Source of the DNA: Rugalucina vietnamica
Lineage: Eukaryota > Mollusca > Bivalvia > Lucinida > Lucinidae
DNA: 64,000 nt
Assembly (NCBI GenBank): GCA_964017185.1
Contig: OZ024883.1
Span: forward strand, 41,966,395-42,030,394
Direction: 5' to 3'
In this document: positions 31,801 through 49,999 of the stretch, piece by piece
How the letters are laid out: each line of letters starts with the position of its first letter
Numbering within the stretch: the first letter of the stretch is position 1
Notes under the pieces: generated by a model
Told to the model about the DNA's origin: nothing
The model's input: the letters and a program-made list of their open reading frames with translations, nothing else
Database searches by the model: none
Translations under genes and position numbers: made by a program

Positions 31801-34800
31801 ATTTTCGATTATAACCGATCATCGTCCCATCACTAGGAGATACAGATCATTCTGTAACATAAATGACAACTCAATTTTGAACAGTCATAAATATGTAAAA
31901 GCATAAAATAATGCTCTAAAATGGCATTTATAGATTCCACAATTGCTGTACAGTTTGAAGAAAGGTTTAAAGTATCAAAATCTTAAAATCCAAACTTGTA
32001 AAATCCATTAGACAAATGCTATGCACTGTTTTAGCGACAATATTTTCCATAAAGGTTACACTATTCCACTTCTCGTCACAGACAGCCCTAAAGCAAGAAT
32101 CTCCTAAATCATGACATTAATTCCTGATTTCAGATCATCATTATTTCTCAACATCATCATTCAAAATGATTATAATAATGAAAATGGTGATATATTTTAC
32201 AGGGAGGGGAAGTCTAATGCCCACCTAAATGGTGACTACCAGAGAATAGGTGATATTATGGTGAATAGTTTCCTTACAGCGCTAGAGGTAATAATTTATG
32301 ATAATTTTATGGGGGTTCATGAAAAAACATGAATCTTAATCATGCCAACAAGGCTCTTGAGCATGAAGGATGCTTTCTCCAATTTTAAGTCTTTACTTAA
32401 TAGCTTAGGTCATTGATTTTAATTTCTTGATTCAAAATGCCAAGTTTCTGTTGACTTCCTGGTGACAAAAATGTTCCATATGAAGGGTTGGAAGCCTTAA
32501 AGTAATGATTGTGCTTTATATGGCTAATATGTACTTTTTCTCATTGCAATACATATATGTACCTTGTTCCATTTTACAGGCCTATATGAACTACCTAGAA
32601 AAGCAGGACGACATTTTAATGGAACTAGACAAGGCTGTAAAAACGGACAAAGATTTTGAGTTCTTGTACAAAGACTTTGAGGGCCAGAAAGTGTGTTATC
32701 TCCCTTTGAATACATTTCTGTTGAAGCCAGGACAGAGGCTGTTGCATTATAAATTACTGCTGGAAAGTAAGTTATTTCCCTTAGATATGATTAAGGAATG
32801 GGAGTTTGGTATGGTTTTGAGAGTTTCAGTAATAAAGTTTCCATAGCATAATGATCCACTTGAAAAAGATGTACACTAGGTCCTTGAAAAAAGGTGAGAA
32901 AAAGTGTCCATTCCTACGATTTTTCGAACAGTTCAGACACAAGCCAGAATGTGCAGTTATTGACATTTCGAAAACTTGTCCATGCAATATGTAGAGATTT
33001 TTATTTTTTTCAGAAGAAAAATTGGAAAATTTCATTGGAAAGAATTTGATATTTATACCCCCCCGCAAAACGAAGTTTTAGGGGGGTATACTGTTTTCAG
33101 CCTGTCCGTGATTCCGTCATTCCGTCAACATTTTGACATCTTTGCTGAATAACTTAAGTAGTTTTTATACCCCCCGCAAAACGAAGTTTTAGGGGGGTAT
33201 ACTGTTTTCAGCCTGTCTGTCATTCCGTCATTCCGTCAACATTTTGACATCTTTGCTGAATAACTTGAGTAGTATTTGCCCGATGTTCTTCAAATTTTCA
33301 ACACACCTGCACCATTAGACAACACATGTGTGATATGAATTTAGGGGCCAAAGGGTCAGTTTTGCAAGAGTTATGGGACTTTTTAGCTCACCTGAGCCGT
33401 TAGGCTCACAAGGTGAGCTTATAGGATGGCCATGATCCGGCGACCGTCCGTCCGTCGTCCGTCCGTCCACAATTTCAAAGATCTTCTCCTCTGAAACCGC
33501 TTGGCCAATCAAAGCCAAATTTGATATGAAGCATCTATAGGAAGGGGGAACCAATGTGTATATAAGAAATCCAGGTCACATGACCAAGATGGCTGCCATG
33601 CCCATATATGGTAAAAACCCTTCAAAAATCTTCTTCTCCCGAACCAGTGGACCAATTTCAACGAAACTTGGCATGTAGCATCAATGGCTCAAGCACTACA
33701 ATGTATATATAAATTATGACCCTGTGATGACCTTGACCTATTTTACAGCAAGGTCAACATAGGTCACCAATGCATTTGAATGGGGAAAACTTTTAAAATG
33801 TCATTTAAAGTGAAAGTCTTGCAGGAAATGGGCAGTAGGACTGAATATTAATGATTCTGAAAAAAATTGGACCCCAGGGGCTCATGTGCCCCCACCCCGG
33901 GGCAATATACATGTATATCTTCACTATATTCAAACATCTTCTCCTCTGAAACCGCTTGACCAATCAAACCCAAATTTTATGTAAAGCATCAATAGGAAGG
34001 GATAACCAATGTGTATAAAAATAATCCAGGTCACATGACCAAGATGGCCGCCATGCCCATATATGGTAAAAACCCTTCAAAAATCTTTTTCTCTGGAACC
34101 GGTGGACCAATTTCAATGAAACTTGGCATGAAGCATCAATGGCTAAAGCACTACAATGTAAATATAAATCATGACCCTGTGATGACCTTGATGTGACTGG
34201 CACACTGGGAATGTACATGAAGGATTATAATGCTGAAAATATATCTTTGACAAATTTTCTGCATGTTTGACTTAGGAAGTTATTGGCCAGCTTCAGATAA
34301 TTTTGCGGGGGGTATACTGAAAGCCTTGCTTGCAGCCAATTTCTAGTTTTGATAAATTTGCTCAAAACATTGATTTAGGGTACACGTTAGAACCGCCTCA
34401 ACGAGGCGTTTCTAACGAGTACCCATAATCTATGTTTTGGATTAAAAATAAAAAAAATATGTATACCCATGCATACCCCAGTTCCGCTGTATAAAAGTGG
34501 AGTTCAAAGGGGTATACATTTCACGGACATGTTTTCCTGATGATATGGATAAAAAGGCTTGAGATTTGCGATATTTGAATTTAGCAAGTAGAGAGGCTAG
34601 CAAAACGAAGTAACTAGTCAGCTGTTTAGTCAATTTTCTCCTAACTTCGCTAAACGTAGATAAATCTTTTTAATTTCTATATTCATTTCCAAACAGAACT
34701 AGGATACTACTGTAAATCCGGAAATTTTCGTGAGATACTTGGCAGTCCAAATCCAAAAAAGTGGCTTAGTTTTGGTTTTGTTGGCATTTTTGAGTACATT

Positions 34801-37800
34801 ATTCTACCTATGCTCATAATATTCCTTGGCATGTGCCCAAACTCGTATGGGTGGATGCCAAGTCTGTTAATGACCCTGGGCCACAGAACAAGGTCAAAGG
34901 TCAAACGAGTGCAAAATAGCAAAAATCGGTAAAAATGAAAGTAGACATTATTGTTTTGGAAAATAATGGACTGATTATAGGTAACTTGTACTCATGTCAT
35001 TCCTTGACATGTCTCCAAAGACATAGAGGTGGATGCCAAGACTGTAAAGGCTCCTGGGTGACAGAATTAGGTCAAAAGTCAAATGAGTGCAAAATAACAA
35101 ACACCCGTTACAATAATCAGGTATTTCTTAAATCAAACATGAACTGACTAAAGGCAACATGTTCTTATTTTATTCATTGATAAGTGTTTAAACTCATATG
35201 GGTATATTCCAAGTCTGTAATTGCCTCTGGGTCACATAATTAGGTCAAAAGTCATATGAGTGCAAAAATATCAAAACCTGTAATGATAACTAATATTATT
35301 CTACTAGCTACCCATACCCCCTTCCCCCAGGGGTAATTTTCTACACTATGATTTTCTAATTTAAGTACATTGAAAAAGCTATCAGCCCCTGTTTTCTGCC
35401 AGTGGAAGCGTCTGCCTTTTATACTATGTTCTATTAAAGTACCCTAAATATTCATTTTTTGCGTTTTTATTATGGGGGTACAGATAGAAAATTGAGAATA
35501 TCTCAGTTATTTGTAATCCTAGACCATTGAACTTTGTCTCATCTTAAAGCTTAGACACAGCCCTTTTTTCCTATGATAAGTAATGGAAAATATCTAATTT
35601 GCATATTCATGAATTTTCATTAAAACTTTAAAATGAATAAAAAGAAACAATTAAAAATCAATTATCCCATAAAAACTAATGTCATGCCTAAACTATCATT
35701 TTGGCTTATTGTTATTGTACCAATAATACTATTTGATAAATTTGTTGATGACTCATGGGCCTAAATAATAATTATCTCATTTGCATTTTCATGAATATTA
35801 ATGAAAATGACGAAAATCAAGATATACAAAGGGAAAATCTATTGCCATTTGAAGGGTTAAGGGTGGAATATCTACAGGATGTACCTTGCACCCTTAGAAC
35901 AAATGCTCATGGGTGCCAGTTTGGTCAGAGGATCTCTTTATTGCCCATGTGTGTCACGTAAAATCATAGAGTGTTCACCCCCACCTCTAATAAGCAGAGG
36001 AAGTAGTGTGGTACACCTATATTACCACATGTTTCTTGGCTACTGATAGACCTTGAGAGAGCAGAAATAGGTATCAAATGATTGGTTTGACAATGCTTGA
36101 TAACCACGTAATAAGATATAAATATCAAACAGACTTCCTGGTCTTCAAATATTAATGCGAACTTTATATATTAGAAAAAAATCACAGAAAAATGGAGTAT
36201 ACCAGCACAATTGCTTATATCTCGTCAACCAAAAGCCCTAGAGAGCTTAAATTGGTACCAAATGATTGCTATGACAATGTTCTATAACTCTGTAATAAGA
36301 TATATAAACAAACTGGCTATCATAGTGCTCAATATTAAAGAGAACTTCAGATATTAGAGAAAAGTGACAGATAAATGAAGGGGGTCTACCAACAAAATTG
36401 CTTATATCTCAGCAACCAAAAACTCTAGAGGGCTGAAATTTATATCAAATGATTGATATGATAATGGTTTATTATAATATGATAAGATACAGACAGAATG
36501 TAACTTTCTTGGGGTACAAATCTTGATGAGAACTTTCAATATTAGAGAAAAATCACAGAACAATGGAGGGGGTATACCTACAGAAATGCTTATAAGCTCA
36601 GCAACCAAAAGCCATAGAGAGCAGAAATTGGTATCAAATAATTGCTATTACAACATTCTAAAACCATGAAATAAGATATATAACAAAATCAGACTTTCGT
36701 GTTTTTCGAATATTGATGGAATCTTAATGAATATAATATTAGAGAAAAATCACAGCAAGTGAAGGGGTTATACATACAGAAACGTTTATATCTCAGCAAC
36801 CAAAAGCCATAGAGAGCAGAAATTGGTATCGAATGATTGCTATGACAATATTCTATAACCATATAATATGGTATATAAACAAGCTGACTTCCATGTTTTT
36901 CAATTTTTTTTTTAGAAAACTTAAGATATAGGAGAAAAGTCACTGGCAAACGAAGGGGGTTTACCAATAAAATTGCTAATATCTCAGTGACCAAAAGCTC
37001 TAGAGAGCTGAAATAGGTATCAAATGATTGCTATAATAATGTTCTATAATAGTATAATAAGATGCATAAATAATATGACTTTCTTGTTGTTGAATTAATG
37101 ATAAGAACTTTAAATATTAGATAATAATCTCAGAAAAATAGAGGGGGTACACCAACGGAAATGTATAAATCTCAGCAACCAAAAGCCATAGAGAGCAGAA
37201 ATTGGTATCAAATGATTGCTATGACAATATTCTATAACCATGTAATAATGCATATAAACAAGCTGACTGTCTTGTTTCTCAAATATTTAAAAAAATCTTA
37301 AGATATAGGAAAAAATCAGTGGCAAACGAAGGGGGTATACCAATAAAATTGCTAATATCTCAGTGACCAAAAGCTCTAGAGAGCTGAAATAGGTATCAAA
37401 TGATTGCTTTAATAATGTTCTATAATAGTGTGATAAGACGCATAAATAATCGGACTTTCTTGTTTTTCGAATAGTGATGAGAACTTAAATATTAGACAAT
37501 AATCTCAGAAAAATAGAGGGGCTATATCAACGGAAACGTATATATCTCGGCAACCAAAAGTCATAGAGAGCTGAAATTGGAATCAAATGATTGCTATGAC
37601 AATACTATATAATCATGTGATAAGGTATATAAACAAGCTTACTATCTTGTTTCTCAAATATTTAAGGACACTTAAGATATAGGAGGAAAATCCTTGGCAA
37701 ATGAAGGGGGTTAACCAATAAAACTGCTAATATCTCAGTGACCAAAAGCTCTAGAGAACTGAAATTGGTATCAAATGATTGCTAGGATAATATTCTATAA

Positions 37801-40800
37801 CCATGTTGTGAGACAAACAAACATTCTGAATTTCTTGATATTCGAATATTGATAAAAACTTTAAATATTAGTGAAAAACCACAGAAAAGTGGATGGGGTA
37901 TACTAAGGAAATGTTTTATGACTTAGCAACCAAAAGTCTTAGAGAGGTAAAATTGATATCAAATAATTGCTATGTTAATGTTCTATAAACATGCGATAAT
38001 AAATGAATAATTTGACTTTCTTGTTGTTTGAATATTGATGAAAACTTGAAATATTTGATAAAAATCACAGAAAAATAGAGGGGGTATACCAACGGAAACA
38101 TTAATATCTCAGCAACCATAAGTCCTAGAGATCTGAAATTGGTATCAAATGATTGTTATGACAATAATGTATAAACATGTAATAATATAAATGACCAAGC
38201 TGACTATACCGTTGCAAAAAATTAAGAAAACTTAAGATATAAGAGAAAAAACACAGACAAATACAGGGGAGTGTACCAATAAAATTGACAATATCTCAGC
38301 AACCAAAAGCTGCAGAGAGCTGAAATTGATATCAAATGATTGCTACGATCATATTCTATACACAATTGATACAAAATGTACATAAAAGAACTTTATCCCC
38401 ATCAGAATACCACTGACATTTATGTTTATACAGGCAATTGTAAAAGGGCATGAAAATAAGCATTTTTTTGCACTAAAGTGACCTTTGACCTAAATCTGCA
38501 TTACTTTGTTGTAACAATTGTAACTGATTACATCATACAAATGCATTAGATGTAATTTGGGGCTTTTTTACAAAAAAAGAAGAAAATATTTCATAAGATA
38601 CTGCCATAATGTTGAAATATCTCAAATTTTGCACTTAGTTGACCTTTGACCTATTTTTGGGTCTCTGGGGCATTTTCAGACTTGGCATCCACCCTAGCGT
38701 GTATTGTTACACATTAAGGTACACATTAGGCATGGATGCCAAAATGTACTCAAAAATGCCAACAGAAAAATATTTGGGGGGCTTGGGAGGCCAACTAAGA
38801 ACTTAAATTTCGGTAATATTCTTGTGAAAATAAAGTTCTCACTAATAAAGAATTACTACACCTAGACCTCTTTATAACAAGCTTCGTTACAACACAGTTT
38901 TGGATAACACTGATCACTCTTGGACCCCAATTGGTCATTTGAGACTATTTTTGCTATATGCCTATACATTTTACTCTTGTTATAACATGGATTGGATAGT
39001 TTACACGGAAATTGGCTTGGACCCCAACAATTATAATGTTATAAAGAGGTTGTGGTGTATAAGCTTTATAGACTGCAATAGTAATTCAAAAAATCGCTAA
39101 TAATCTGGAAAACAAAAATTTGCGAAATAAAAGCCACGCGAAAATTTACGGACTTACAGTTTTATCGTCTTTTTTGTACTTTTTGGTCAGCTAAATCCTG
39201 CTCTCCACTTAGTCGTAAAGTGTCCATGACATAATTTTCTTAGTCCTTATTAGTGATAATTGGGCAGTCTAGACCATATAATTTCTCTGAATAAAACACA
39301 ATTTGGCGTAATTTCCTTTTGATCCCATGTGAAATGTTTTGATTACTCTTCGCCTGAAACTGTCATTTGAGCCGCCTCGTGGGAAAACCAACAATGTGGT
39401 TTCCGAACAGGTCCAACACAAACCGGACTGCACAGTCAAAGAAGACAGCTAGAAGCATGAAATTTCGTATGTAACAAGTAAAGGGATTGTATTATCTGTG
39501 TAGCGAAAACAAAGGCGCTGATCAGCTTCGCGGTTGATCTGCGCCTTTGTTTTCGCATATGCAAATTGTTGGTTTTCCCGTGAGGCGGCTCATTTGCTGC
39601 TGACATTTTGGAAAATAGTTTTGATACAGATAAGGCCTGGTGTGCGATGACCTAGTGGTAGAGTTGACTCTGAATGGAGAGGTAATGGATTCAAGCACCA
39701 CTGGGGTGCTGTGTTTCCTTGAGCAAGGCACATGAAGTCCTTATTGTAGTGGTTAGTAACAAGGAAGAGCTGGCTCGGTCTTGGCATGACTAAAAAATTA
39801 TTGACTTATACGTTAAACCACAAAACATGCAAATGAATATGTCAGAGATTATGGCTGGCCCCTTTCTTGTCGTTTGTGTTTTTGTGTGTTAGATACATGT
39901 ACTTTGCTGGTTACTTAAATGAGCATAAAATTTATATCATGGTGTGGTATTGTCAATTTGATGTTTCATCAGTAAACTATTATGATTCTGACATATGGTA
40001 CTCGCAGGACTACTTCTTCATTACATGTACATGACTCCATGTAATAATAATTAAATGATAAATAATTTCACGAGTGTAACACAATCAGTACAAAACTAGT
40101 CTCCTTTGCATCCCTCAAATCTTCAATCTGAGGGGTATCTATAAAGCGTCGCACATGTTAATAGTTCTTTTGCAATTTGTTTATTACAGGAATTACCAAG
40201 CATTATTCCACAACACATCCTGATTATGCTGAATGCATGGGTAAGTGTAAAAGGAAACATCTTTCTGCATAGCTCAGAAGTAGGAAGTACTCATCAAACA
40301 GAAACAATCATCAAAATTAAACCGTGAACCAAACAAGCCTCCGCACAAGAAAAACATCAATCTGCATATGCGAAAACAAAGACACAGATCAGCTGTGCAG
40401 TAACTGCACAGCTGATCAGCGCTTTTATTTTCACTACGCAGATAGAACAATCCCTCTTCTACTTTAATCCGAAATTTAAAGCTTCTAGCCTTCTTCTGTG
40501 ACTGTACAGGACAGTTTGTGTAAGACCTGGTGCGGAAATCCAAATTGTTGGTTTCCTCATGCAAAGGCTCTAACATAAGTTATGAACAGGAATTATTGCA
40601 TAAATACCCGTGCCACACGATATTAACAGCCGTTTATTAATGAAGAGAAAGCCATGCATTAACATTGCAATTCACGCGCGCACGTGCTGTTAATACATGG
40701 CTTTTACTTATGCTCGTTACCGGGCGCCACGCAAAGCACGTGCTAGGAATGAGAAACTGAAGTCCGCCCGGAACGAGCATAAAAACTAACGCTTTTACGC

Positions 40801-42827
40801 GTATGAAAATGTGATGAGGCTGTAAAATATAGTGCACCATATTTCTTTCGTTTCTGCACCTTATTTCTTTCGTTTCTGCAGAATTTATGCAATAATAGCG
40901 ATCAAAATGATTTTGTCATTCATTAACATTCGCTAGGTCCCTCGGGGAGTGTTGAAAACCTCGGGCTACGCCCTCGGTTTTCAACACTCCCCTCGGGACC
41001 TAGCAAATGTTAATGAATGGAAAATCATGTTTGATCCCTATATTAAAGGAGACTATGTTCAAATTAAATGGTGATGAAAAGCAAGATGACCTTACTGAGG
41101 GGATAAAATCAATTTCTTTACCCTTATAAAGCTTGGTGGCTTAGTTATGCACAAAAAGAGAGCAGATTTCCAAAAGGGTGCATTTTTATTATGCGTAACA
41201 TTGTGGATATTTGTAACAAAGCAACTGCTTTTGACTTGCCCAGCAGACGTATACTGACTACTGAGAGGGTCCACAATATTGTCAAAAGTGAGATTCAGAT
41301 GAAATAATCTGCTGTGATTAACCAAGCAAGAAAACTTTTGACCTTTGAATTGGATTTCTTCTTTTGCAGCAACACTGAAGAAAGTCAGTGAGCTTACAAA
41401 CACTTTTAAAGGACAGAGAAAGTGTATGGTAGGTACATGTGTTGTTTGGCAAATAAGAGCCTCATCAGGATAACAAATTTGTGACATGTATACCTCCTTG
41501 AACCCCACTTTTGTATAGCAAAACTGGGGTATGCAAGGGCATATCTACTTTTCTTATTTTGACTCCAAAACAATGATTGTTGGTACTCGTTAGATCCGCC
41601 TCATTGAGAAAAGTAGATATAGTTGCATACCCCAGTTTTGCTATATAAAAGTGGTGTTCATGGGGGTACACATGTCCAAAAATTCTATTGAAAATTTTCA
41701 AATAAAATCTGTTTATCACATGGGCATGTTTTCGTAATGCTATAGCTAAAAAAAAAAAGACCTGAGTTTGGTGGCTTGGTGGTAGAGCGTTGGGCATCAG
41801 GCCCAGAAATCAGGAGTTTGAATTCTAAGCTGGTCAAGTTGTGTCCTTGAGCAAGATGTAGTCTCCCCATATTACCAGCTGTTTATACAGGAAGAGATGA
41901 CTGTTCTGACATGACTGAAAAATTGTTGACTCTCGCTTTGGACTATTTACAAACATATTTTGCTAGAAACCAGGTCTGAAGCTCAAACACTTGTTTTACA
42001 ACCACAAAAGATTATTTGAAATTTGAGGTTGAGAAAATTTAAACGAGTGGGGGTTTGTGTAAGGAAAACAAAAGTACAGATATGCTGCCTGTTAAAATAG
42101 CTATACACCCGTGTTATTGCATATGCTTTTGAAATTTGTTTCTTAATGATAAGACTTTTTTGTCAGTCGTGTAGTGTTTTAGACCAGTAATTTCTTGGAA
42201 TGTTGACTACCGTATTAACACCGTTTGTATCTGTACTCTTTTGTAGGAAAATTTACAGAAGTTGATGGAATTACAGCGAGATCTCATAGGTCTAGATAGT
42301 TTGGTGCATCCCGATAGGGTAAGTTTTCCATTCTCCACAACCCTTCTTTAAAACTATTATCAGGACCTATGGCAATTCCTGTATCAGCTATTCAATCCCC
42401 GCTTCACTGAGAGTATAGTAGTGTATGGTTTTCTAGTAAAACTCATTTTAACACATAATTATAAGCCTGGCATGCTTTTTATGGGACATAGGCAAACTGC
42501 ATAGCCCCAGATGGGACACCGCAGACAGCGGCGTCCCATCTGGGGGGTATTCTGTTTGCCTAGAGGAACTTCATCGAAAAATGGAATATTCAGGCGGCCC
42601 CCGTGGCCGAGTGGTTAAGGTCGCTGACTTCAGCGCTCTTAATCATTCGATCATCTCACCGCTGTGGGTTCGCGCCTCGCTCGGGGCACGAGTCACATGT
42701 GGGACAAGCCAAGTTCTGCTTGCGGGTGTGTCAGGTGGTTTTTCCCCGGGTACTCCGGTTTTCGCCCCACCTACCGATTGATTCGTCTCGATATGAGTGA
42801 AAAAGCTTGAAAGGGACGTAAAACTGA

Positions 42828-42865
<38 letters not shown>

Positions 42866-45800
42866 AAAATGGAATAAATATTCAAAGTCACTCCTAACGC
42901 CCCTAAAATTGACAATGGGTTCACCCAAATGATAATACTGGGAAAATCCTTTCGTCAAATATGGGTTAAGTTACCTTTTATGGAGCATGTTGGCCTAGGT
43001 AGAGGTAGAGCCAGAGGTACAGGGTTTGAACCCCACTGAAACCATGTGGTCGTTCGTCTCTCACTAATGAGGAAGACCATCATTATTTCTTGAATAGGTT
43101 CGTGTGTGTTTGTGAGTTCTTTGATGGCTGACTAGGCCAATTCTAGCAATAAACTGTCGGTTGCAAGTAGAGCAAGTCAATGTCATGGAAACTGCTGGAG
43201 GCCCATTGGTCTTGGCTTTGCATTCTCTGTGCTTTCTTTCAGCTTCACAGATTCTCTGAAACCATGTAAAGCCCTTGAACAAGACACTTAAAGCTCCCCA
43301 TATTACTGGTTAAATACCCTGAAAACTGTAGGCTTTGTTTATTGAAAAATTGTTGTTAATTTCAGGAGTTTATCAGAGAAGGTTGTCTTCAGAAGTTTTC
43401 TAGGAAAGGTTATCAACAGAGAATGTTCTTTTTGGTGAGTACACCCTGCTCTACATTTAAATTTTGTTGACAATATATAAACCACACAATATCTTAAAAG
43501 CGTGACAATATATAAACCACACAATATCTTAAAAGCGTGACAATATATAAACCACAATATCTTAAAAGCGTGACAATATATAAACCACACAATATCTTAA
43601 AAGCGTGACAATATATAAACCACACAATATCTTAAAAGCGTGACAATATATAAACCACACAATATCTTAAAAGCGTGACAATATATAAACCACACAATAT
43701 CTTAAAAGGGTGACAATATATAAACCACACAATATCTTAAGGATGTTCGCTGCCAACATTTGACATTTTGGAACTTCCGGTTTTTATTTTGTTGAATATC
43801 TCGTAGACGGTTGCAGATATTTTCCTAATATTTTATATTTGAATACATATTGATGATATGCATTGAACGAGTCATGAAAATTGTCAATCTAAGGAACTTC
43901 ATTTTTTCACCCCATTTTCTGCAACTTTTTTGAAAATTTTATGTGTCAACAAAATTTAGGGGGTAGGGTTGATTAAACTTGAATAGTACGCAACTTCAAA
44001 TTACTTGCACTGATTTGATGTTTATTTTAGTAAAAGTAGATGTATACAATGTCTTCTTTAGCAGTATTTCTTTTTTTGGTGTGCTAGTTATAAATTTTGG
44101 GTGGTTTTATGAAATGGGGTGTTAGAAGAAAAACGGCCGAAAAAAGGCTTAAAATGGCGATTTTCAAGTTGTTGGTTCTCTCTTATATGCACACTACCCT
44201 ATATTTTTCATTCTTTTATTCGAATAATATGAATAAGTTCTGTGTTGTGTGAAAATACAAGAAAAAGTTTGAATCTACAAATATGGATTTGACATATTTA
44301 TTAATATTGAATTTTTTCGACTTTTCAAATTAGGGGGTAGGGTTGTTCAAAGAGTCAAAAACAATTGTCATCCACTTCAAGGTGAAAATTTATGTATGTT
44401 TTAGGTCCAAAATAGACAGCGTTACTTAAACAAAATGCCTTTTGAAAGCATCCGTGATGCATTGTTTGTCCAGGAAGGTATATGTGAAAGAATTGAAGAT
44501 TAAAATATTTTTTCTAATTTTCAAACATGTTGTTTAGAGGTCTCATTCAGAGCCCTGTAGCTCGAAAAAATGCACACTACCCTATATTTATTTTGTTTTC
44601 ATATGTCTTATTTTATCTTTTGGAATCAAAAAAGAGCAGTTAGAAAAAAAGTTTGAATACTTTTTCATTGGCAGCGAACATCCTTAAAAGCGTGACAATA
44701 TATAAACCACACAATATCTTAAAAGCGTGACAATATATAAACCACACAATATCTTAAAAGCGTGACAATATATAAACCACACAATATCTTAAAAGCGTGA
44801 CAATATATAAACCACACAATATCTTAAAAGCGAGAGAAACCTTGAGGACGGAACTTCAAATATAAAATAAGAACATGGATAATGAAATTTTGAATATTTT
44901 TCTAGTAAAAATTTTCCCGATGGAAGGTAAATGTAAGTAAAACTTAATTTATTCAAAAAGAATCGCCAAATACGTTTCCCAGATATCAGGTTTAACCCAT
45001 TAATACTTTATTTTCAGTTTTCTGATATGCTAGTCTATACCAGTAGAACTGCCATGCCAATGTTACAGTTCAAGGTACATGGACAAGTACCACTTAGGGG
45101 AATGATTGTAAGTATAGTGAACACCATAAATTAACAACAGAAATTAGAAACCTCTGTTTGCTTTATCTGCACCTACATGTGAACAACTAGGCAGTTTCTT
45201 TCTTCTTTGTTTTTTAATGCAGAGGCTCAGTGGTAGCACATCAGATTCTTGAGCAACATGTTTGGGATTTGAAACTATTGCTGCTGTGTTGTGTCCTTGA
45301 GCAAGAGATTTTAAGCTCCACAAAGTAGTTAAAGATGAGGCATAAGTTTTGGCCAAGTATCTAATGAAAGCAAAGACTGATCAGCTGCTTTGTTAAAGCG
45401 CTGCTGATCTCTGCCTTTTGTTTTATGGTAAATGTTTCTGACATTCACATACATGTAAATGTATAATATGCTCCAATAATTTTGATCTTTGTATTCCTAG
45501 ATTGAGGAGTCAGACCATGCTAAAATGGCCGTTGCAAACAGTTTTGCCATCTATGGTGGAAATAAATGTATCTTGGTAGCAGCAAGGTAAAAAGTCTAAC
45601 AACAATATTTGAGCCGCGACTCGAGAAAAACGGACTTCAGGGTTTCCGGCCAGGTCTGACACAAACCGAGCTGTACAAGCACAGAAGATGGTTAGAAGTA
45701 TAAATTTGGATTTAGGAAAAAGGGGCATTGTACTATCCGTGTAGCGAAAACAAAGGCGCTGATCAGCTTCGCAGCCACTGCGAAGCTGATCTGCACCTTT

Positions 45801-48800
45801 GTTTTCGCATAGGCAAAAACCCGGTTTTCTCCTGGCGTGGCTCATTTTATGTAACGTGCATTTTGGTGGCGATTTTAATGCTATATGCTGTATCAAGAAG
45901 AGTAAAAAGAATGTGGTCGTTATATGGGTAATTGCTATGCAAGGTGAATGAATGAACAGAGTGGTTAAGTCACTGAAATGACCTCAAGTCTTTTATTGTG
46001 GTCTTTTAAGGCAAAAAACAAACAAGGGGAGCGTGGAGGCCTAAATGAAGAAGGAGAGTCGAAGGGGTGGGAGGGGAATCCATCTGACACCAAGTTTCGT
46101 CTTTGAGCAAAACATGTTTACAACTCATAGCACTGGACAATACCCAGGACGTTTAGCTCCATCCTGGCATGTTTGAAAAACTGTTGATTCGAAAGTTAAA
46201 CAGAAGTTCAAAGACAAATTAAACTAGCAAATATCGGCCAGTTATTTAATCTTTACAATATTTATCTTTTTCACATTAAGAGCGAGCTGTAATGAAGGCT
46301 TGAAATAGACAAAACCGTAGGCTAAAAATAGGAATGGAATTACCTAAAGGCTAAAAATAGAAATAACCTATATATTTATCTCTCGTTTAGTTCACAAGAA
46401 GAAAAAGACAAGTGGATCGAGGACTTGAATGAGGCTGTGATAAAGGCTAAAAATAGAAACGATGACAAACTGAAGTTTGCAAGTCTCAAATCTAGTACCA
46501 GTAAGTACAAACAATTTTTCTTCTGGATGAGAGAAATTTTACACAAGAAGCCTCTTTGGTGCAGTGGTTTAGCCACTCTTCTTGAGATTATAAAACTTTT
46601 TTCAAGCTCAGCTCAGCTGATTATGAAATTTCAACTACTCATAAATGTTGAAATAGTTGAAATTAGTGGAAAATTCCGGTTCAATACTCAACAATTAGTA
46701 ATTTATCCTGCTCATAAATGTTGGCATTTTAACATTCATGAGCAGGATAAATTTTAGTCTCAGCTGAGCTGAGCATGAAAAAAAGTTTATAATCTCAAAC
46801 CCGATGTTGTTGGTTTGATTCCTTGGCCCTCCAGACTTTTGGATGAGGCTTTAAATCAAGGTTCTGTCTCCTTTGACCTAAATTTCTTGTCTGAGAATTT
46901 GATTTTGTAATTGATACAAGGTGAAAAAAAATAAATAAAATGTGATACAACAAAAAAGACAAAGAAAAAAGAAGACAAAGAAATGTAACTCACATTGTCC
47001 CAACATGACTGAGAAAAAATATTGATTTGGATATATAGCCTGAAACAAAGCAATGATAGTTCTTCTAATGCATAAAGTACAGGACTCCAGAGCAAGAGAT
47101 CCTGGGTTCAATACGTTTAGCTCCCCAATCTAGTTAAGACCCAGAAAAATGAGTCTGTGTCGAAACACAATTTAAAAATTGTTGACGGGGATGTAAAGCC
47201 ATAACCAAACCAAAACCATATTTTGAATTGCAGGTTCCACAGAGAATGTTGAAGCCGCAGATGGGAGCAATCCTGACCAAGGACCACCATCCCCAGAAAA
47301 ACAGGTCCAACATCGGGCCAACACTACTATGCATGTGTGTTGGCATCGGAACACTTCTGTCAGTAAAAGAGATTTTGAAAAGGCAGTCAAGGTAATAATA
47401 CATTATTCCATTGCGCCCCACCACCTACCCTGGGGCATCTGATTAAGGTACACCAACATCAGAAAAACAGGCCCACCATCGTGCCAACACTACTATGCAT
47501 GTGTGTTGGCATAGGAACACTTCTGTCAGTAAAAGGGATTTTGAAAAAGCTGTAAAAGTAATTAAACATAATTCTATGGCACCACACTCAGCCTGGGGCA
47601 TCAGGGAAAACTCAGCCTGGGGCATCAGGGAAAACAGCCTGGGGCATCAGGGAAAACAGCCTGGGGCATCAGGGAAAACAGCCTGGGGCATCAGGGAAAA
47701 CAGCCTGGGGCATCAGGGAAAACTCAGCCTGGGGCATCAGGGAAAACTCAGCCTGGGGCATCAGGGAAAACAGCATGGGGCATCAGGGAAAACAGCCTGG
47801 GGCATCAGGGAAAACTCAGCCTGGGGCATCAGGGAAAACTCAGCCTGGGGCATCAGGGAAAACAGCCTGGGGCATCAGGGAAAACTCAGCCTGGGGCATC
47901 AGGGAAAACAGCCTGGGGCATCAGGGAAATGAACGCTTAAGATTATGAATACATCAGATAGAAATAGACTGAAAAGCCTCATTATACATGATTTTAAAAA
48001 TACTGTTCCAAAAAGTTCCTACCCCCTTCATTCTTTCATTCTAACACCACTCATCTCAAAGCCACAAATTAAGGTCTACAATCACATTAGAGGCATTAGA
48101 CGTTGAAGTTTGCTCCGAAAGCAGCATTTTTAAAACGTTAACTAACATAATTTTTCCGCTCCATTTTAGTTTCCTAAATTTTTGCAAAATCTGGACAATT
48201 TCTCCAAATTTTCACATGAAATAGTTTTATAAAGCAATAATAACGATCAAACATGTTCTTTCTGATGCATTAAAGTCAGCTGGACCCCTCTCTGGAGGGT
48301 TGAAACCCTCGCATTTCAGGCTCGGGTTTCAATGCCTCCCTGGGAGCCCAGCAGATGTTAATGCATAGAAAACCATGTTTGATCCTTATATCATGTTCCT
48401 TTTCAGAATCAGCTGAGTGGTTATCTGTTACGAAAGTTCAAGAACAGTAACGGTTGGCAGAAACTCTGGGTTGTGTTCACAAACTTCTGTTTATACTTCT
48501 ACAAAACATATCAGGTTGGTATAGTCCTGCTTGTATTCAAGACTGTTAATTTCCCCAATCTTTTGGCTGAGATTAACTTAAGCCTGGCGTCCCTCATATG
48601 GGATATAGGCAAACATAATAGCCCCAGATGTGATGCCGCAGAACGCGGCGTCACATCTGGGGCTATTCTGTTTGCTGAACGAACATTCATAAAAAGAAAT
48701 GAATAAAATTTAAAAATCACTCCTGATGCCCACAAAAATGAAAGTGGACTCAACCAAATGATAACAGTTGGTGATTCCATTCGTCATTAATGGGTTAATG

Positions 48801-49999
48801 TAATGTAAGACTTGTGAAAGAATCAGTGTGTGTTTTGCAAGTGTTTTCTATCTTTTTAATGATTAAAACATTCATGCAATAACAAAGTCTTGAATTTACA
48901 ATTTACTTGCAAACAAGTGATTCAAGTGATTAAACCATTTCAAGCATTTAATCTAGAACTTCTGTTATAGTTGTCTCTAACATGCTGGTTACCCACAGAC
49001 AACCAACGGTAATGAGAACAACTAACACAGAAGAAATCAATATGTAACAATAGAAAACAAATGCCTGTCTGGGAACAACTTTCTGAGGGATGGAACTATC
49101 CATGGAAAGTTGTTCCCAGACAGGTATTTGTATACTTAAATCTTACCTGTATATCAATTTTATCCACTTCGGTTGTTCTCAGTCTCATTGGTTGTCTCTG
49201 GATACCCTATGTGTCAGAGAATTACATGTATTTGTATTATTGAATTCAAATTTTGCAGGATGACTATCCATTGGCTAGCTTGCCGTTGCTAGGTTACGCT
49301 GTCAGCCAACCAGAGGACGGGGATGGTATTCATAAAGATCATGTGTTCAAATTACAGTTCAAAAATCATGTGTATTTCTTCAGAGCGGAAAGTGAATATA
49401 CTTTCGAAAGGTAATGTACAGATGTAAATAATTATTGATTAAAGCTTTTGGGTGAGATAGAAGAGCAATTTGTCAAATACTAGAAAAAGAATAGGCATTA
49501 TATACTGATCAGCCCAGAGGAATATTTCAGAAAAGAGAAGTTAGGTTATGGTCTTTACATTTTAGCTAATAAGTTGATTGTAGTGGAATAGCAACAAAGC
49601 AAATCTTGTGAGCCTTTACCATTTTACGAAAATTAGCACTTTCAACAAATTGGAAGCCTCTGTGAGAGGTAGGTTAAGGGTTTCTGATTTCATTACCGCT
49701 CTTAATCATGAATGAATTCCAATGCTGTGTCCAATGTGGGTTCGGGTCCATGTGAGGCACATATTGGACATTTCAAGTTCTGTTTGCTGGTGTGTCATGT
49801 GTTTTTGTCGGGGGTACTCCTGTTTTTGCCCCACCTACTGATTGGCAAGTCTGAGTGAGATAATCTTGAAGGGGACATAAAAATGAATGAAAAAAAAAAA
49901 ATCTTTTTTTTTCCCAGGTGGATGGAAGTGATCAACAGTGCTACAAGTAGTGCCAGAAGAATAAGACTGTTCAGTAGAATGGATAGCATGCAACCTTGA
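25601..49999 (+). CDS. FARP-type Rho GEF: linker, DH, PH1, PH2 (17 exons, C-terminal part)
   Basis: FERM, ARHGEF and pleckstrin domain protein; vertebrate FARP1/2 are Rac-family exchange factors at membranes and synapses. Joined exons: 25601-25832, 27170-27524, 28705-28794, 29590-29720, 32203-32287, 32580-32766, 40190-40240, 41370-41428, 42247-42318, 43366-43434, 45018-45107, 45501-45586, 46391-46500, 47234-47391, 48407-48514, 49259-49410, 49918-49999. Every junction is GT-AG and phase-consistent, giving 704 residues plus stop. Residues about 1-195 are a Pro/Ser linker; DH runs from about 197 (ERTYKKDLEVIT, then KVCYLPLNTFLLKPGQRLLH, which keeps P-x-Q-R) to about 396; PH1 about 421-528; PH2 about 592-692. 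The FERM domain must come from upstream exons outside the window. In vertebrate FARPs the DH-PH-PH module is autoinhibited through the DH C-terminal helix and the PH domains. The paralogue name is uncertain, as invertebrates usually have one copy. Confidence 0.95.
25869..26250 (+). mobile_element. H5 element, copy 1
   Basis: Founding description of H5: starts TTATTGCATAAATACCCGTG, includes a CpG-bearing segment (TTCACGAGCGCACATGCTG), and ends with a hairpin flanked by CATTCATTAACATT and AATGTTAATGAATGG, then CATGTTTGATCCCTGTATT. About 380-455 bp, no open frame of interest. Confidence 0.8.
26251..26430 (+). repeat. SINE-1 copy
   Basis: Plus orientation, abutting H5: TTAGTTCGTCAGACTCTGG head, GTCCTTCAGCAAGACAC, GTTAATACCCAGGAAGCG, ACTTTTGACTGGGATGT. 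Confidence 0.75.
26484..26712 (-). mobile_element. H3 element, copy 2 (best hairpin)
   Basis: Minus orientation, with a near-perfect hairpin at about 26606-26671 (CAAACAGAATAGCCCCAGAT and its complement around GACGCCGCG). Confidence 0.8.
27170..27524 (+). CDS. FARP exon b (polyproline linker up to the DH boundary)
   Basis: Acceptor TTCTTTGCTTTTCAG; the T completes an Asn codon begun in exon a. Contains YPPPPPPPLS, a possible SH3/EVH1-type ligand, and ends GDENRRRTK before GTGAGT at 27525. A second possible donor, AAG|GTGAGA, lies 9 nt later (27533/27534) and would add VSK in frame. Confidence 0.92.
27678..28306. mobile_element. Inverted-repeat element with inner foldback
   Basis: The ends CTAGTCAAAAGTTCTGAACG and CGGTTAGAACTTTTGGCTAG are inverted repeats that extend imperfectly to about 50 bp (TCGATTTTCTT / AAGAAAATTGA). 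Inside, 27840-27958 is a second foldback (GTGAAAAATTGCCCCACCAC and complement). Non-coding. Confidence 0.75.
28705..28794 (+). CDS. FARP exon c (start of DH, CR1)
   Basis: Thirty codons, phase 0 to 0. Encodes YPVDRAYYIAKELL and TERTYKKDLEVITV, the first conserved region of the DH domain, which normally contacts the GTPase switches. Confidence 0.97.
28795..29589 (+). other. FARP intron
   Basis: No repeat of the families named here; a short (CA)n-A run sits at 29213-29236. It ends TTCTTTCAG. Confidence 0.6.
29590..29720 (+). CDS. FARP exon d (DH)
   Basis: Starts WFKNSVSGEEIIP and ends EIEQRLSM plus two bases of a Trp codon, donor GTAGGT. Confidence 0.97.
29795..31835. mobile_element. hAT-type element split by block B
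   Basis: Ends TAGTGATGGGAATCGG and CCGATCATCGTCCCATCACTA, flanked by a perfect 8-bp duplication GGAGATAC (29787-29794 and 31836-31843), the hAT hallmark. The remaining own sequence (29795-30089 and about 31637-31835) is a ~500-bp MITE; the rest is a later insertion. Confidence 0.88.
30090..31636 (+). repeat. Block B: three tandem ~450-bp units inside the hAT element
   Basis: Starts TAGCTCACCTGAGCCGTCAG with a small end hairpin, then a (GTCC)n/(GTCCGTC) run. Three units follow, beginning near 30203, 30665 and 31120, each with CAAAGATCTTCTTCTCTGAA-like starts, CACATGACCAAGATGGCCGC and TGACCTTGACCTATTTTACG. It ends TCTCAGGTGAGCGTTTACAG and a GGACCATTGGTCC palindrome. Short frames recur in each unit but have no known domain. 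Confidence 0.85.
32203..32287 (+). CDS. FARP exon e (DH)
   Basis: Completes the Trp codon; encodes EGKSNAHLNGDYQRIGDIMV and on to TALE; donor GTAATA. Confidence 0.96.
32580..32766 (+). CDS. FARP exon f (DH core, CR3)
   Basis: Encodes AYMNYLEKQDDILMELD through KVCYLPLNTFLLKPGQRLLH and YKLLLE, the DH helix that forms much of the GTPase interface. The P-x-Q-R signature of typical DH domains is present. One base of the next Arg codon is left before GTAAGT. Confidence 0.97.
32964..34542 (+). mobile_element. H2 element, copy 5, interrupted by two nested insertions
   Basis: The left arm (CATTTCGAAAACTTGTCC... GATATTTA) ends at about 33054 and resumes at about 34346 (GATAAATTTGCTCAAAACAT), running on through the palindrome to CACGGACATGTTTTCCTGAT. 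The insert is described separately. Confidence 0.82.
33055..34345 (+). mobile_element. Element A (TATACCCCCCGCAAAACGAA type), carrying a block B copy
   Basis: Left part in two tandem copies (33055-33166, 33167-33278) beginning TACCCCCCGCAAAACGAAG with an immediate hairpin partner TTTTAGGGGGGTATAC. The right end is TTTTGCGGGGGGTATACTGA near 34300-34320. From 33383 (TAGCTCACCTGAGCCGTTAG) to about 34192 it holds two units of block B lacking the normal B right end. The order of insertion is therefore H2, then A, then B. Confidence 0.75.
36030..38370 (+). repeat. ~188-bp satellite array, about 13 units
   Basis: A marker like ATCTCAGCAACCAAAAGC recurs near 36220, 36405, 36595, 36788, 36980, 37168, 37355, 37545, 37730, 37920, 38103 and 38293 (spacing 183-193), with a diverged unit before 36220. 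From 36788 to 37730 units alternate between AGCAACCAAAAGCCATAGAG and AGTGACCAAAAGCTCTAGAG types, a dimeric higher-order pattern. Confidence 0.9.
38859..39057. mobile_element. TA-flanked MITE inside the H6 composite
   Basis: Ends CACCTAGACCTCTTTATAAC and GTTATAAAGAGGTTGTGGTG are inverted repeats, with TA at 38857-38858 and 39058-39059. It interrupts the right half of the outer H6 sequence. Confidence 0.8.
39369..39591 (+). mobile_element. H1 element, copy 6 (hairpin half deleted)
   Basis: ATTT duplicated at 39365-39368 and 39592-39595. The right hairpin arm is missing: AGCTTCGCGGTTGATCTGCG replaces the usual double-arm sequence. Confidence 0.88.
39637..39828 (+). repeat. SINE-1 copy
   Basis: Head GACCTAGTGGTAGAGTTGAC, body CTTGAGCAAGGCAC, 3' region CTAAAAAATTATTGAC. 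Confidence 0.75.
40190..40240 (+). CDS. FARP exon g (DH C-terminal part)
   Basis: Fifty-one nt, phase 1 to 1, encoding ITKHYSTTHPDYAECM. The preceding intron (32767-40189) is 7.4 kb, mostly nested repeats. Confidence 0.93.
40335..40570 (-). mobile_element. H1 element, copy 7 (minus)
   Basis: Arms CAGCTGTGCAG / CTGCACAGCTG intact. The left end is decayed (AAGCC) and no clean target duplication remains. Confidence 0.8.
40589..41044 (+). mobile_element. H5 element, copy 2 (fuller)
   Basis: Has the complete right hairpin: CATTCGCTAGGTCCCTCGGG with its complement CCCGAGGGGAGTGTTG-type arm around CTCGGGCTACGCCCTCGG (40929-41015). A TTATTTCTTTCGTTTCTGCA stretch is duplicated at about 40840-40880. 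Confidence 0.85.
41370..41428 (+). CDS. FARP exon h (last DH helix)
   Basis: Encodes TLKKVSELTNTFKGQRKCM, phase 1 to 0, donor GTAGGT. This helix is the autoinhibitory segment in vertebrate FARPs (established structures; transfer to this protein is inference). Confidence 0.92.
41463..41739 (-). mobile_element. H2 element, copy 6 (minus, rearranged)
   Basis: Both ends present (CATCAGGATAAC and GGGCATGTTTTCGTAATG), but the central palindrome is partly replaced by a repeated piece of the right arm (ATACCCCAGTTTTGCTATAT). Confidence 0.75.
41763..41950 (+). repeat. SINE-1 copy
   Basis: Head TGGTGGCTTGGTGGTAGAGC, B box GGAGTTTGAATTC, body GTGTCCTTGAGCAAG, 3' region CTGAAAAATTGTTGACT. Confidence 0.8.
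42247..42318 (+). CDS. FARP exon i (DH-PH1 hinge)
   Basis: Twenty-four codons, phase 0 to 0: ENLQKLMELQRDLIGLDSL and VHPDR. Strongly FARP-like. Confidence 0.96.
42440..42969 (+). mobile_element. H3 element, copy 3, interrupted by a SINE-2
   Basis: Hairpin at about 42490-42560 (AGCCCCAGATGGGACACCGC and near complement). The right arm continues after the SINE to ATATGGGTTAAG. Confidence 0.8.
42589..42863 (+). repeat. SINE-2, full length, tRNA-Leu/Ser-like head
   Basis: The head CCCGTGGCCGAGTGGTTAAG is a textbook class II tRNA A box, followed by a long variable region and B box GTGGGTTCGCGCC; GCCCC and GGGGC can pair as an acceptor stem. Body includes GACAAGCCAAGTTCTGCTTG, and the tail is a long A run (42830-42863). 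Flanked by a 13-bp target duplication GAAAAATGGAATA (42576-42588, 42864-42876). It looks young. Confidence 0.92.
43000..43350 (+). repeat. SINE-1 copy split by a LINE tail
   Basis: Head GTAGAGGTAGAGCCAGAGGT and B box GGTTTGAACCCC, then the insertion, then AGCCCTTGAACAAGACACTT and TTGAAAAATTGTTG. Its 3' end lies about 14 nt before the exon at 43366. Confidence 0.8.
43048..43255 (-). mobile_element. LINE 3'-end fragment with C2H2 finger
   Basis: The minus strand encodes a piece with EAERKHRECKAK and a C2H2 finger CSTCNRQFIARIGLVSHQRT, the kind found at the C-terminus of some non-LTR retrotransposon ORFs (family knowledge), and ends NNDGLPH-stop. A 12-bp duplication CTGAAACCATGT flanks it (43036-43047, 43256-43267). 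Confidence 0.75.
43366..43434 (+). CDS. FARP exon j (PH1 first strands)
   Basis: EFIREGCLQKFSRKGYQQRM and FFL: basic beta1-beta2 of PH1. Donor GTGAGT. Confidence 0.97.
43469..44832 (+). repeat. 35-bp minisatellite (12 units), interrupted
   Basis: Unit GACAATATATAAACCACACA plus ATATCTTAAAAGCGT. Eight units lie at 43469-43740 (one is 33 bp) and four at about 44694-44832. The gap is a transposable element inserted within unit 8's TTAA. Confidence 0.95.
43741..44683. mobile_element. 943-bp element with TTAA target duplication
   Basis: Perfect 16-bp inverted ends GGATGTTCGCTGCCAA / TTGGCAGCGAACATCC, flanked by TTAA at 43737-43740 and 44684-44687 as in piggyBac-type insertions. The interior repeats GGGGGTAGGGTTG twice (about 43958 and 44332) and ATGCACACTACCCTATATTT-like motifs twice (about 44188, 44569). 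No transposase. Confidence 0.9.
45018..45107 (+). CDS. FARP exon k (PH1)
   Basis: FSDMLVYTSRTAMPMLQFKV and HGQVPLRGMI, phase 0 to 0. Donor GTAAGT. Confidence 0.97.
45226..45345 (+). repeat. SINE-1 fragment
   Basis: CTCAGTGGTAGCACATCAG head and GTTGTGTCCTTGAGCAAGAG; 3' part lost. A degraded H1-like palindrome (GCAAAGACTGATCAGCTGC) follows at 45367-45425. Confidence 0.6.
45501..45586 (+). CDS. FARP exon l (PH1)
   Basis: IEESDHAKMAVANSFAIYGG then NKCILVAA, ending two bases into a Ser codon. Donor GTAAAA. Confidence 0.95.
45611..45843 (+). mobile_element. H1 element, copy 8
   Basis: ATTT duplicated at 45607-45610 and 45844-45847. Arms CAGCTTCGCAG / CTGCGAAGCTG. It begins only 25 nt after the exon donor. 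Confidence 0.92.
46026..46210 (+). repeat. SINE-1 copy, diverged
   Basis: GGGGAGCGTGGAGGCCTAAA head, TCTTTGAGCAAAACATG, CAATACCCAGGACG, AAAACTGTTGATTCG. Confidence 0.65.
46391..46500 (+). CDS. FARP exon m (PH1 C-terminal helix, start of linker)
   Basis: QEEKDKWIEDLNEAVIKAK is the PH1 alpha helix with its invariant Trp. Continues NRNDDKLKFASLKSST and ends one base into a codon, so it can join either linker exon at 47234 or 47448. Confidence 0.96.
46584..46796. mobile_element. H4 element, copy 3
   Basis: GAGATTATAAAAC and GTTTATAATCTC ends; inner palindrome around TTGGCATTTTAACATTCATG weaker than in copy 1. Confidence 0.75.
47040..47225 (+). repeat. SINE-1 copy next to a FARP acceptor
   Basis: B box TCCTGGGTTCAATACG, TAGTTAAGACCCAG, then AAAAATTGTTGACGGGGATG and CCAAACCAAAACC. 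Its tail runs to within about 15 nt of the exon at 47234. Confidence 0.75.
47234..47391 (+). CDS. FARP exon n1 (PH1-PH2 linker, long version)
   Basis: 158 nt, phase 1 to 0, encoding STENVEAADGSNPDQGPPSP then a conserved block ANTTMHVCWHRNTSVSKRDF and EKAVK that leads into PH2. The conserved block matches the vertebrate FARP linker. Donor AAG|GTAATA. Confidence 0.96.
47448..47557 (+). CDS. FARP exon n2: alternative linker exon, 16 codons shorter
   Basis: A diverged duplicate of n1. Acceptor GATTAAG|GT gives a phase-1 start; donor AAA|GTAATT gives phase 0, so it can replace n1 in frame but cannot follow it in frame. It encodes TPTSEKQAHH then the same 27-residue block from the conserved His onward. 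In those 27 codons all seven differences from n1 are synonymous, while the linker head differs at four residues. Only 56 nt separate the n1 donor from this acceptor, too short for splicing between them in most animals. The polypyrimidine tract is C-rich and modest, so expression needs RNA evidence. Confidence 0.7.
47589..47930 (+). repeat. 22/24-bp minisatellite, 15 units
   Basis: Unit CAGCCTGGGGCATCAGGGAA plus AA, sometimes preceded by CT. It starts about 31 bp after the n2 donor. The same motif appears once in the n1-n2 gap (ACCCTGGGGCATCTGATTAA, near 47427), so the array grew from the duplicated intron flank. The long frame across it is spurious. Confidence 0.95.
48228..48395 (+). mobile_element. 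H5-related short foldback
   Basis: TAATAACGATCAAACATG and CCATGTTTGATCCTTATA ends, with an inner hairpin GGCTCGGGTTTCAATGCC near TGAAACCCTCGCATTTCAGG. It corresponds to the right hairpin of H5 only, and ends about 10 nt before the PH2 acceptor. Confidence 0.7.
48407..48514 (+). CDS. FARP exon o (PH2 first strands)
   Basis: NQLSGYLLRKFKNSNGWQKL then WVVFTNFCLYFYKTYQ. The core of PH2, nearly invariant in FARPs. Donor GTTGGT is a weak consensus. Confidence 0.98.
48576..48797 (+). mobile_element. H3 element, copy 4
   Basis: Complete copy with a strong hairpin at about 48607-48676 (AGCCCCAGATGTGATGCCGC and complement) and right end CGTCATTAATGGGTTAATG. Confidence 0.85.
48985..49205. mobile_element. 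Foldback element before the last PH2 exons
   Basis: CAACCAACGGTAATGAGAAC pairs with GTTCTCAGTCTCATTGGTTG, and an inner pair CCTGTCTGGGAACAACTTTC / GAAAGTTGTTCCCAGACAGG is perfect. About 220 bp, non-coding. Confidence 0.8.
49259..49410 (+). CDS. FARP exon p (PH2)
   Basis: DDYPLASLPLLGYAVSQPED then KDHVFKLQFKNHVYFFRAES and EYTFE, two bases of Arg left. Donor GTAATG. Confidence 0.98.
49690..49895 (+). repeat. SINE-2 copy abutting the last FARP exon
   Basis: ACCGCTCTTAATCATGAATG, B box GTGGGTTCGGGTCC, CCCCACCTACTGATTGG, GAAGGGGACATAAAAATGAA, A12 tail. The exon's polypyrimidine tract (T9CCCAG) starts directly after the tail. Confidence 0.85.
49918..49999 (+). CDS. FARP last exon q (PH2 helix and C-terminus)
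   Basis: WMEVINSATSSARRIRLFSR then MDSMQP-stop. The invariant Trp of the PH alpha helix is present. Confidence 0.98.

What the first reader, a model, noticed from the sequence alone, without database searches (positions are those of the whole stretch)
47234..47557. Mutually exclusive exon pair for the FARP PH1-PH2 linker
Exon n1 (47234-47391) has a duplicate n2 (47448-47557). Over the 27 conserved codons before PH2 they differ at seven sites, all synonymous, while the upstream linker differs at four residues and is 16 codons shorter. Both are phase 1 to 0, so either fits alone but both together break the frame, and the 56-nt gap is too short for normal splicing between them. Seven of seven silent changes argue for selection on both copies. 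Because PH1 and PH2 contribute to FARP autoinhibition, linker length could tune Rac activation.
Basis: partly seen in the sequence, partly recalled or inferred. Interest (0 to 1): 0.85.

Follow-up and report, generated by a model that had tools for sequence, protein, structure and literature searches.

The report
Partly duplicated exon in FARP gene
Part of one exon of an animal signalling gene (FARP, a regulator of the cell skeleton) was copied next to itself, and the copy still looks protein-coding, so the gene may be able to choose between two versions of a linker, though no RNA evidence was available to show that the copy is used.

Summary
The duplication is real, in a FARP gene with no second close copy found in its genome. 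Over 27 codons the copies differ at seven sites, all silent. The chance is 2-7 in 100,000 if both copies drifted freely and 0.5-1.9 in 1,000 if one did throughout. That 27-codon boundary was seen before it was tested: over all codons shared by n1 and n2, the one-free chance is 0.8-2.8% (n2 from 47463) or 4.7-12% (n2 from 47448). Using exactly one copy keeps the frame; both, neither, or a retained gap gives a stop.

Two corrections. The duplicated unit starts inside exon n1 (about 47273), so n2 inherited a donor but no acceptor. The acceptor proposed at 47448 is very poor; 47463 is better, though weak, also in frame and well spaced from a branch-point motif. n2 is probably 47463-47557, with a linker 21 residues shorter rather than 16.

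Best reading: a frame-enforced, weakly spliced mutually exclusive pair, a new member of a known kind. Main rivals: a copy that recently fell silent, or never worked. An effect on Rac is speculation.

The parts
46391..46500 (+). FARP exon, end of PH1 domain; ends in phase 1
   Evidence: tblastn of FARP1/2 pieces; AG/GT sites; translation
47234..47391 (+). n1: standard PH1-PH2 linker exon, phase 1 to 0
   Evidence: phmmer to 4gzu/4h6y FARP2/FARP1; acceptor in top 1.3% of random AGs
47273..47438 (+). first copy of the 166-nt duplicated unit (3' part of n1 plus start of the next intron)
   Evidence: offset-166 comparison, repeat family D3
47439..47604 (+). second copy of the unit; homology runs to about 47602 in the gapped alignment, where the repeat array takes over
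47392..47447 (+). gap between n1 and the first candidate acceptor of n2: no AG before its last two bases; holds one GGGG run; the only yTnAy motif in 47380-47470 has its A at 47442
47444..47446 (+). TAA where n1 has CAA (47278-47280): closes n2's frame upstream, so an n2 exon must begin after it
   Evidence: acceptor scores, branch-point spacing and translation
47495..47497 (+). in-frame ATG inside n2 (Met of TTMHVCW): possible start codon if n2 were a first exon
   Evidence: codon table
47589..47929 (+). minisatellite of 15 copies of a 22/24-nt unit, each with two runs of G, starting 32 nt after the end of n2
   Evidence: G-run list
48407..48514 (+). next FARP exon, start of PH2; phase 0 start
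49259..49410 (+). FARP PH2 exon
49918..49999 (+). last FARP coding exon in this model, ends SMQP-stop

Best explanation
n2 is a real alternative exon made by a tandem duplication of the 3' part of the FARP PH1-PH2 linker exon (shown: duplication, open frame, intact donor). Both copies have been kept under protein-level selection on the 27 residues leading into PH2 (supported statistically, with the boundary chosen after the fact). A transcript must contain exactly one of the two to stay in frame (shown by translation). n2 would be spliced from 46500 to a newly arisen weak acceptor, most likely before 47463 using the branch-point motif at 47442. That A is 50 nt from n1's donor, so splicing n1 to n2 would be cramped, and if it happened the product would carry an early stop (inferred). 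Because n1's acceptor is far stronger, n1 is expected to be the default and n2 a minor or tissue-specific form; the array of G runs after n2's donor may help it (inferred). The product would be FARP with the same conserved linker core and a head 21 (or 16) residues shorter.
For: 7 of 7 changes silent over 27 codons. P = 2-7e-5 if both copies drifted freely and 0.5-1.9e-3 if one did throughout; simulation gave 0-4 all-silent outcomes per 40,000 runs. The change in pattern falls where the alignment to FARP1 and FARP2 also tightens: 7 silent and 0 coding in the core against 1 silent and 5 coding in the linker head, Fisher p = 0.005 (one search gave 6e-4 by counting all six as coding). Frame logic. 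n2 donor intact. Only these two places were found to match the exon DNA in the 1.09-Gb genome, and no second FARP was found, so a surviving paralogue as source is unlikely. The gap copy lacks the CAG that precedes (C)CTGGGGCATC or CATGGGGCATC in 15 of 15 copies downstream, as expected if an intervening AG would spoil n2's acceptor. Three tandem alternative myosin exons in the same genome have acceptors (picked by me by eye) scoring -3.4 to -5.1, no better than n2's 47463 at -2.28.
Against: No RNA data. n2 inherited no acceptor. On the 27-site model 47448 scores -9.03, below 27 of 27 real acceptors; 47463 scores -2.28, with 1 of 27 real acceptors at or below it, and 30% of random AGs do as well (37% and 46% on the other two models). 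Counting from the start of the exon instead of the core, the one-copy-free chance rises to 0.8-2.8% (31 codons, n2 from 47463) or 4.7-12% (36 codons, n2 from 47448). Silence over the last 10-20% of n2's history has likelihood 0.34 and 0.13 on the core. No related species could be examined. The 15 array copies are related, so the lost CAG is one event, not fifteen, and 6.9% of random 54-nt intron stretches lack AG.
Confidence: 0.45

Rival explanations
1. n2 was a working alternative exon for most of its history but is now silent or spliced only at noise level; its sequence has not yet had time to decay.
For: Weak acceptors next to a well-kept coding core and donor. Death within the last fifth of its history has likelihood 0.13 or more on the 27-codon core.
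Against: The donor and the full 27-codon frame are intact with no indel. Death for half of its history has likelihood 0.014 on the core.
Confidence: 0.28
2. n2 was never functional: a neutral partial duplication whose differences in the core happen to be silent.
For: No inherited acceptor. Over the whole shared exon the pattern is 8 silent to 5 coding (36 codons) and one copy drifting freely throughout is not rejected there (4.7-12%). The intron flank is 37 of 45 identical when gapped, so the core (74 of 81) is only moderately more alike than its flank.
Against: P 0.5-1.9e-3 on the core and 0.8-2.8% over the 31 codons shared if n2 starts at 47463. Gene conversion would not favour silent differences (inference).
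Confidence: 0.15
3. n2 is an alternative first exon: transcription starts in or near the gap, no acceptor is needed, and the in-frame ATG at 47495 starts a short protein with little beyond PH2.
For: Good donor without a good acceptor; in-frame ATG with A at -3; conserved codons downstream of it.
Against: The same ATG is in n1, so its presence is not specific. The six core codons before it are also kept (one silent change), which a leader sequence would not need. No promoter evidence was sought.
Confidence: 0.08
4. An assembly artefact (two haplotypes laid in tandem).
For: None beyond the general risk in repeat-rich regions.
Against: The copies differ at 7 of 81 core bases and 8 of 45 aligned intron bases, more than I would expect between alleles. 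The unit starts inside an exon.
Confidence: 0.04

Closest known systems
Tandem-duplicated mutually exclusive exons with incompatible frames (human survey PMC5740500; passages seen)
   Same: Adjacent homologous exons, same phases, joint inclusion gives a frameshift. That survey reports 60% of human clusters with lengths not divisible by three and 9% with donor to branch point under 50 bp.
   Different: Here the copies differ in length because the duplication began inside the exon, and no transcript evidence exists.
OGDH exons 4a/4b (PMC7969005; start of abstract and passages seen)
   Same: Exclusion through a branch point close to the upstream donor in the intervening intron.
   Different: OGDH uses mapped distant branch points and long pyrimidine tracts; here the single motif lies at the 50-nt threshold, none is mapped, and the tract is weak.
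Muscle myosin heavy chain alternative exons (PMC3912159, listing only; cluster seen in this genome)
   Same: Tandem alternative exons in the same genome with acceptors that also score poorly on a simple model.
   Different: Those have clear pyrimidine tracts upstream. That they are the known mutually exclusive set is recalled, not tested.
coq-2 exons 6a/6e and their homologues in helminths, annelids and molluscs (PMC7434440; passages seen)
   Same: A pair of mutually exclusive internal exons changing a protein segment, reported in molluscs.
   Different: Equal length in C. elegans (134 nt each), RNA-confirmed, known biochemical effect.

Membership tests
Mutually exclusive exon pair | Adjacent homologous exons with the same phases | tested here: met
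   (homology over the 3' part of the exon only)
Mutually exclusive exon pair | Each copy flanked by usable acceptor and donor | tested here: inconclusive
   n2 donor good; n2 acceptors weak, 47463 comparable with the myosin control exons, 47448 worse
Mutually exclusive exon pair | Joint inclusion or joint skipping is non-productive | tested here: met
   stops in both cases
Mutually exclusive exon pair | Both copies under coding constraint | tested here: inconclusive
   clear in the 27-codon core, modest over all shared codons, recent loss not excluded
Mutually exclusive exon pair | Transcripts contain one or the other | not testable with these tools
   no RNA data held
Steric (branch-point proximity) exclusion | Branch point of n2 under about 50 nt from n1's donor | tested here: inconclusive
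   only yTnAy motif in 47380-47470 at A47442, 50 nt from the donor; the branch point is not mapped
FARP gene | DH-PH-PH protein closest to FARP1/FARP2 | tested here: met
   phmmer best matches 4gzu (FARP2, E 2.3e-76) and 4h6y (FARP1, E 1.4e-72) for the linker and PH2, the same two for DH/PH1 pieces; PH domain in Pfam

The most novel reading that the evidence does not exclude
A partial-exon duplication lacking an acceptor became a working mutually exclusive exon by evolving a new acceptor out of former coding sequence and losing an intervening AG. A G-run minisatellite that grew at the duplication's end supports its donor. The gene thereby gained a short-linker, differently autoinhibited FARP.
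Probability: 0.18. Interest if true: 0.6.

Novelty: new member of a known kind. Interest (0 to 1): 0.4.

Why it matters
If n2 is used, it is a natural experiment on how short the PH1-PH2 linker of FARP can be while the autoinhibited fold is kept, and an example of an exon copy that must make its own acceptor. Searches for such a pair in FARP (15 of 16 papers listed; 20 of 81; one each), judged by titles and abstract starts, showed none; they cover open-access papers only.

Tried and rejected
Surviving paralogue as source of n2: unlikely, since two exon matches and one close FARP locus were found (these searches score only the best candidates).

Conserved RNA hairpin in the exon core (GCCAACAC...GTGTTGGC): both copies fold only slightly better than shuffles (z -1.85 and -1.28). 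Fold of the gap region: z -2.03. Neither pursued.

First acceptor model from 11 FARP sites: found too narrow. Taking the best AG near each of 30 myosin exon matches, only 2 of 30 exceeded the 99% null. It was rebuilt with 16 myosin acceptors that I picked as having clear boundaries; 14 of the 30 were dropped as uncertain, and the 30 loci were 30 of 91 matches. The picks favour good-looking sites. A pyrimidine-tract measure did not separate n2 or n1 from random AGs; 2 of 31 real sites, n1 among them, are as poor as n2.

Relatives in other collections: viral contigs gave none. Genome contigs gave one hit, 30% over 44 residues, in a groundwater Nitrospinota bin; it was translated and I take it as chance. 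No animal relative was obtained.

Structure prediction was not tried, because the spliced protein is not contiguous in the window. Odds were lowered after one search showed that the evidence for selection weakens when all shared codons are counted. My notebook entry calls the linker changes all coding; one of six can count as silent.

Full report
What the gene is. The translated exons around the finding match FARP2 (4gzu, E 2.3e-76) and FARP1 (4h6y, E 1.4e-72) best by a wide margin, and pieces of the upstream exons match their DH and PH1 domains. FARP exons were placed by tblastn and by AG/GT boundaries from 25601 to the stop after SMQP at 49997-49999; the two exons before 28705 were assigned by position only. 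The window lies at C15:41966395-42030394 of a 1.09-Gb genome. The exon DNA was found in only two places, both here. Of seven protein matches five are this locus and two are weak PH-like matches elsewhere.

What is duplicated. At an offset of 166 nt, identity is 6 of 39 over 47234-47272, 26 of 33 over 47273-47305, 74 of 81 over 47311-47391 and 26 of 48 ungapped in the intron start, or 37 of 45 when three single-base gaps are allowed. The unit therefore runs from inside exon n1 into the next intron. n2 got the 3' part of the exon and its donor, but neither the first 39 bases of the exon nor the acceptor. A TAA at 47444-47446 (CAA in n1) closes the frame upstream.

Selection. In the 27 codons leading into PH2 there are seven differences, all silent. 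With transition/transversion weights of 1, 2 and 4, the chance of this is 1.6e-5, 3.6e-5 and 7.4e-5 if both copies drifted freely, and 5.4e-4, 1.1e-3 and 1.9e-3 if one copy did throughout. A simulation gave 0 to 4 such outcomes in 40,000 per setting. In the nine linker codons before them there are six changes that alter five residues. Counting the third base of the double change as silent (1 silent, 5 coding), the contrast with the core has Fisher p = 0.005. The boundary was suggested by the data, although the alignment to FARP1 and FARP2 also tightens there. Without it the evidence is weaker: for the 31 codons wholly shared if n2 starts at 47463 (7 silent, 2 coding), the one-copy-free chance is 0.8-2.8%; for the 36 shared if n2 starts at 47448 (8 silent, 5 coding), it is 4.7-12%, and both-free is 0.2-0.8%. 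Protein-level selection on both copies is therefore likely but not certain, and need not act now: silence over the last tenth or fifth of n2's history has likelihood 0.34 or 0.13 on the core.

Frame. The upstream exon plus n1, n2 from 47448, or n2 from 47463 gives an open protein through PH2 (202, 186 and 181 residues from the PH1 exon on). n1 with either n2 stops inside n2; skipping both stops after 50 residues; retaining the gap stops in the gap. Exclusivity is thus set by the frame.

Splice sites of n2. The donor is good. On a model of 27 acceptors from this genome (11 FARP, 16 myosin picked by me), n1 scores 7.58, n2-47448 scores -9.03 (77% of random AGs do as well) and n2-47463 scores -2.28 (30%; 37% and 46% on the two narrower models). 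In the same genome three tandem alternative exons of a myosin gene, which I take from memory to be the known mutually exclusive muscle set, have acceptors, chosen by eye, at -3.4, -5.1 and -4.8. A low score therefore does not exclude 47463. The only yTnAy motif in 47380-47470 has its A at 47442, 20 nt before the last base of the CAG of 47463, 5 nt before the last base of the AG of 47448, and 50 nt from n1's donor. I therefore prefer 47463. The gap has no AG before 47446. 15 of 15 downstream copies of the (C)CTGGGGCATC / CATGGGGCATC element are preceded by CAG and the gap copy is not. About 6.9% of random 54-nt intron stretches lack AG, so this is suggestive only.

Surroundings. A 15-copy minisatellite (47589-47929) starts 32 nt after the end of n2. 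It carries 30 of the 35 G runs counted in 47392-48406; the background in 33000-43000 is 7.8 per kb. G runs can act on nearby splice sites through hnRNP H/F (general knowledge; one search is a search listing, papers not read). Any effect here is a guess.

Function. PMC6041286 (passages) states that crystal structures of FARP1 and FARP2 DH-PH-PH are autoinhibited, with PH2 blocking the GTPase site, and that it has been suggested that the proteins lost exchange activity. The primary paper (He et al. 2013) was not held; that its linkers are well ordered is my recollection. n1 and n2 give the same conserved core, so any effect would come from the shorter, variable head. This is untested.

Verdict.

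Noticed in passing
window 47589-47929: Minisatellite of 22/24-nt units rich in G runs, sharing the element that ends the duplicated unit.
   Followed up: partly
L040 1078-1173, 2026-2130, 3004-3096 (G000:C3): Three tandem alternative exons in a myosin head gene, taken from memory as the known mutually exclusive muscle cluster; used as a control for acceptor scores.
   Followed up: partly
window 47317-47346 and 47483-47512: 30 bases identical in both copies include an 8-bp inverted repeat (GCCAACAC/GTGTTGGC); folding is only slightly better than shuffles.
   Followed up: partly
window 46582-46798: Inverted repeat with 73-nt arms (82% complementary) in the intron before n1, possibly a mobile element remnant.
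   Followed up: no
window 48609-48675: 31-nt inverted repeat (94% complementary) in the intron after the first PH2 exon.
   Followed up: no
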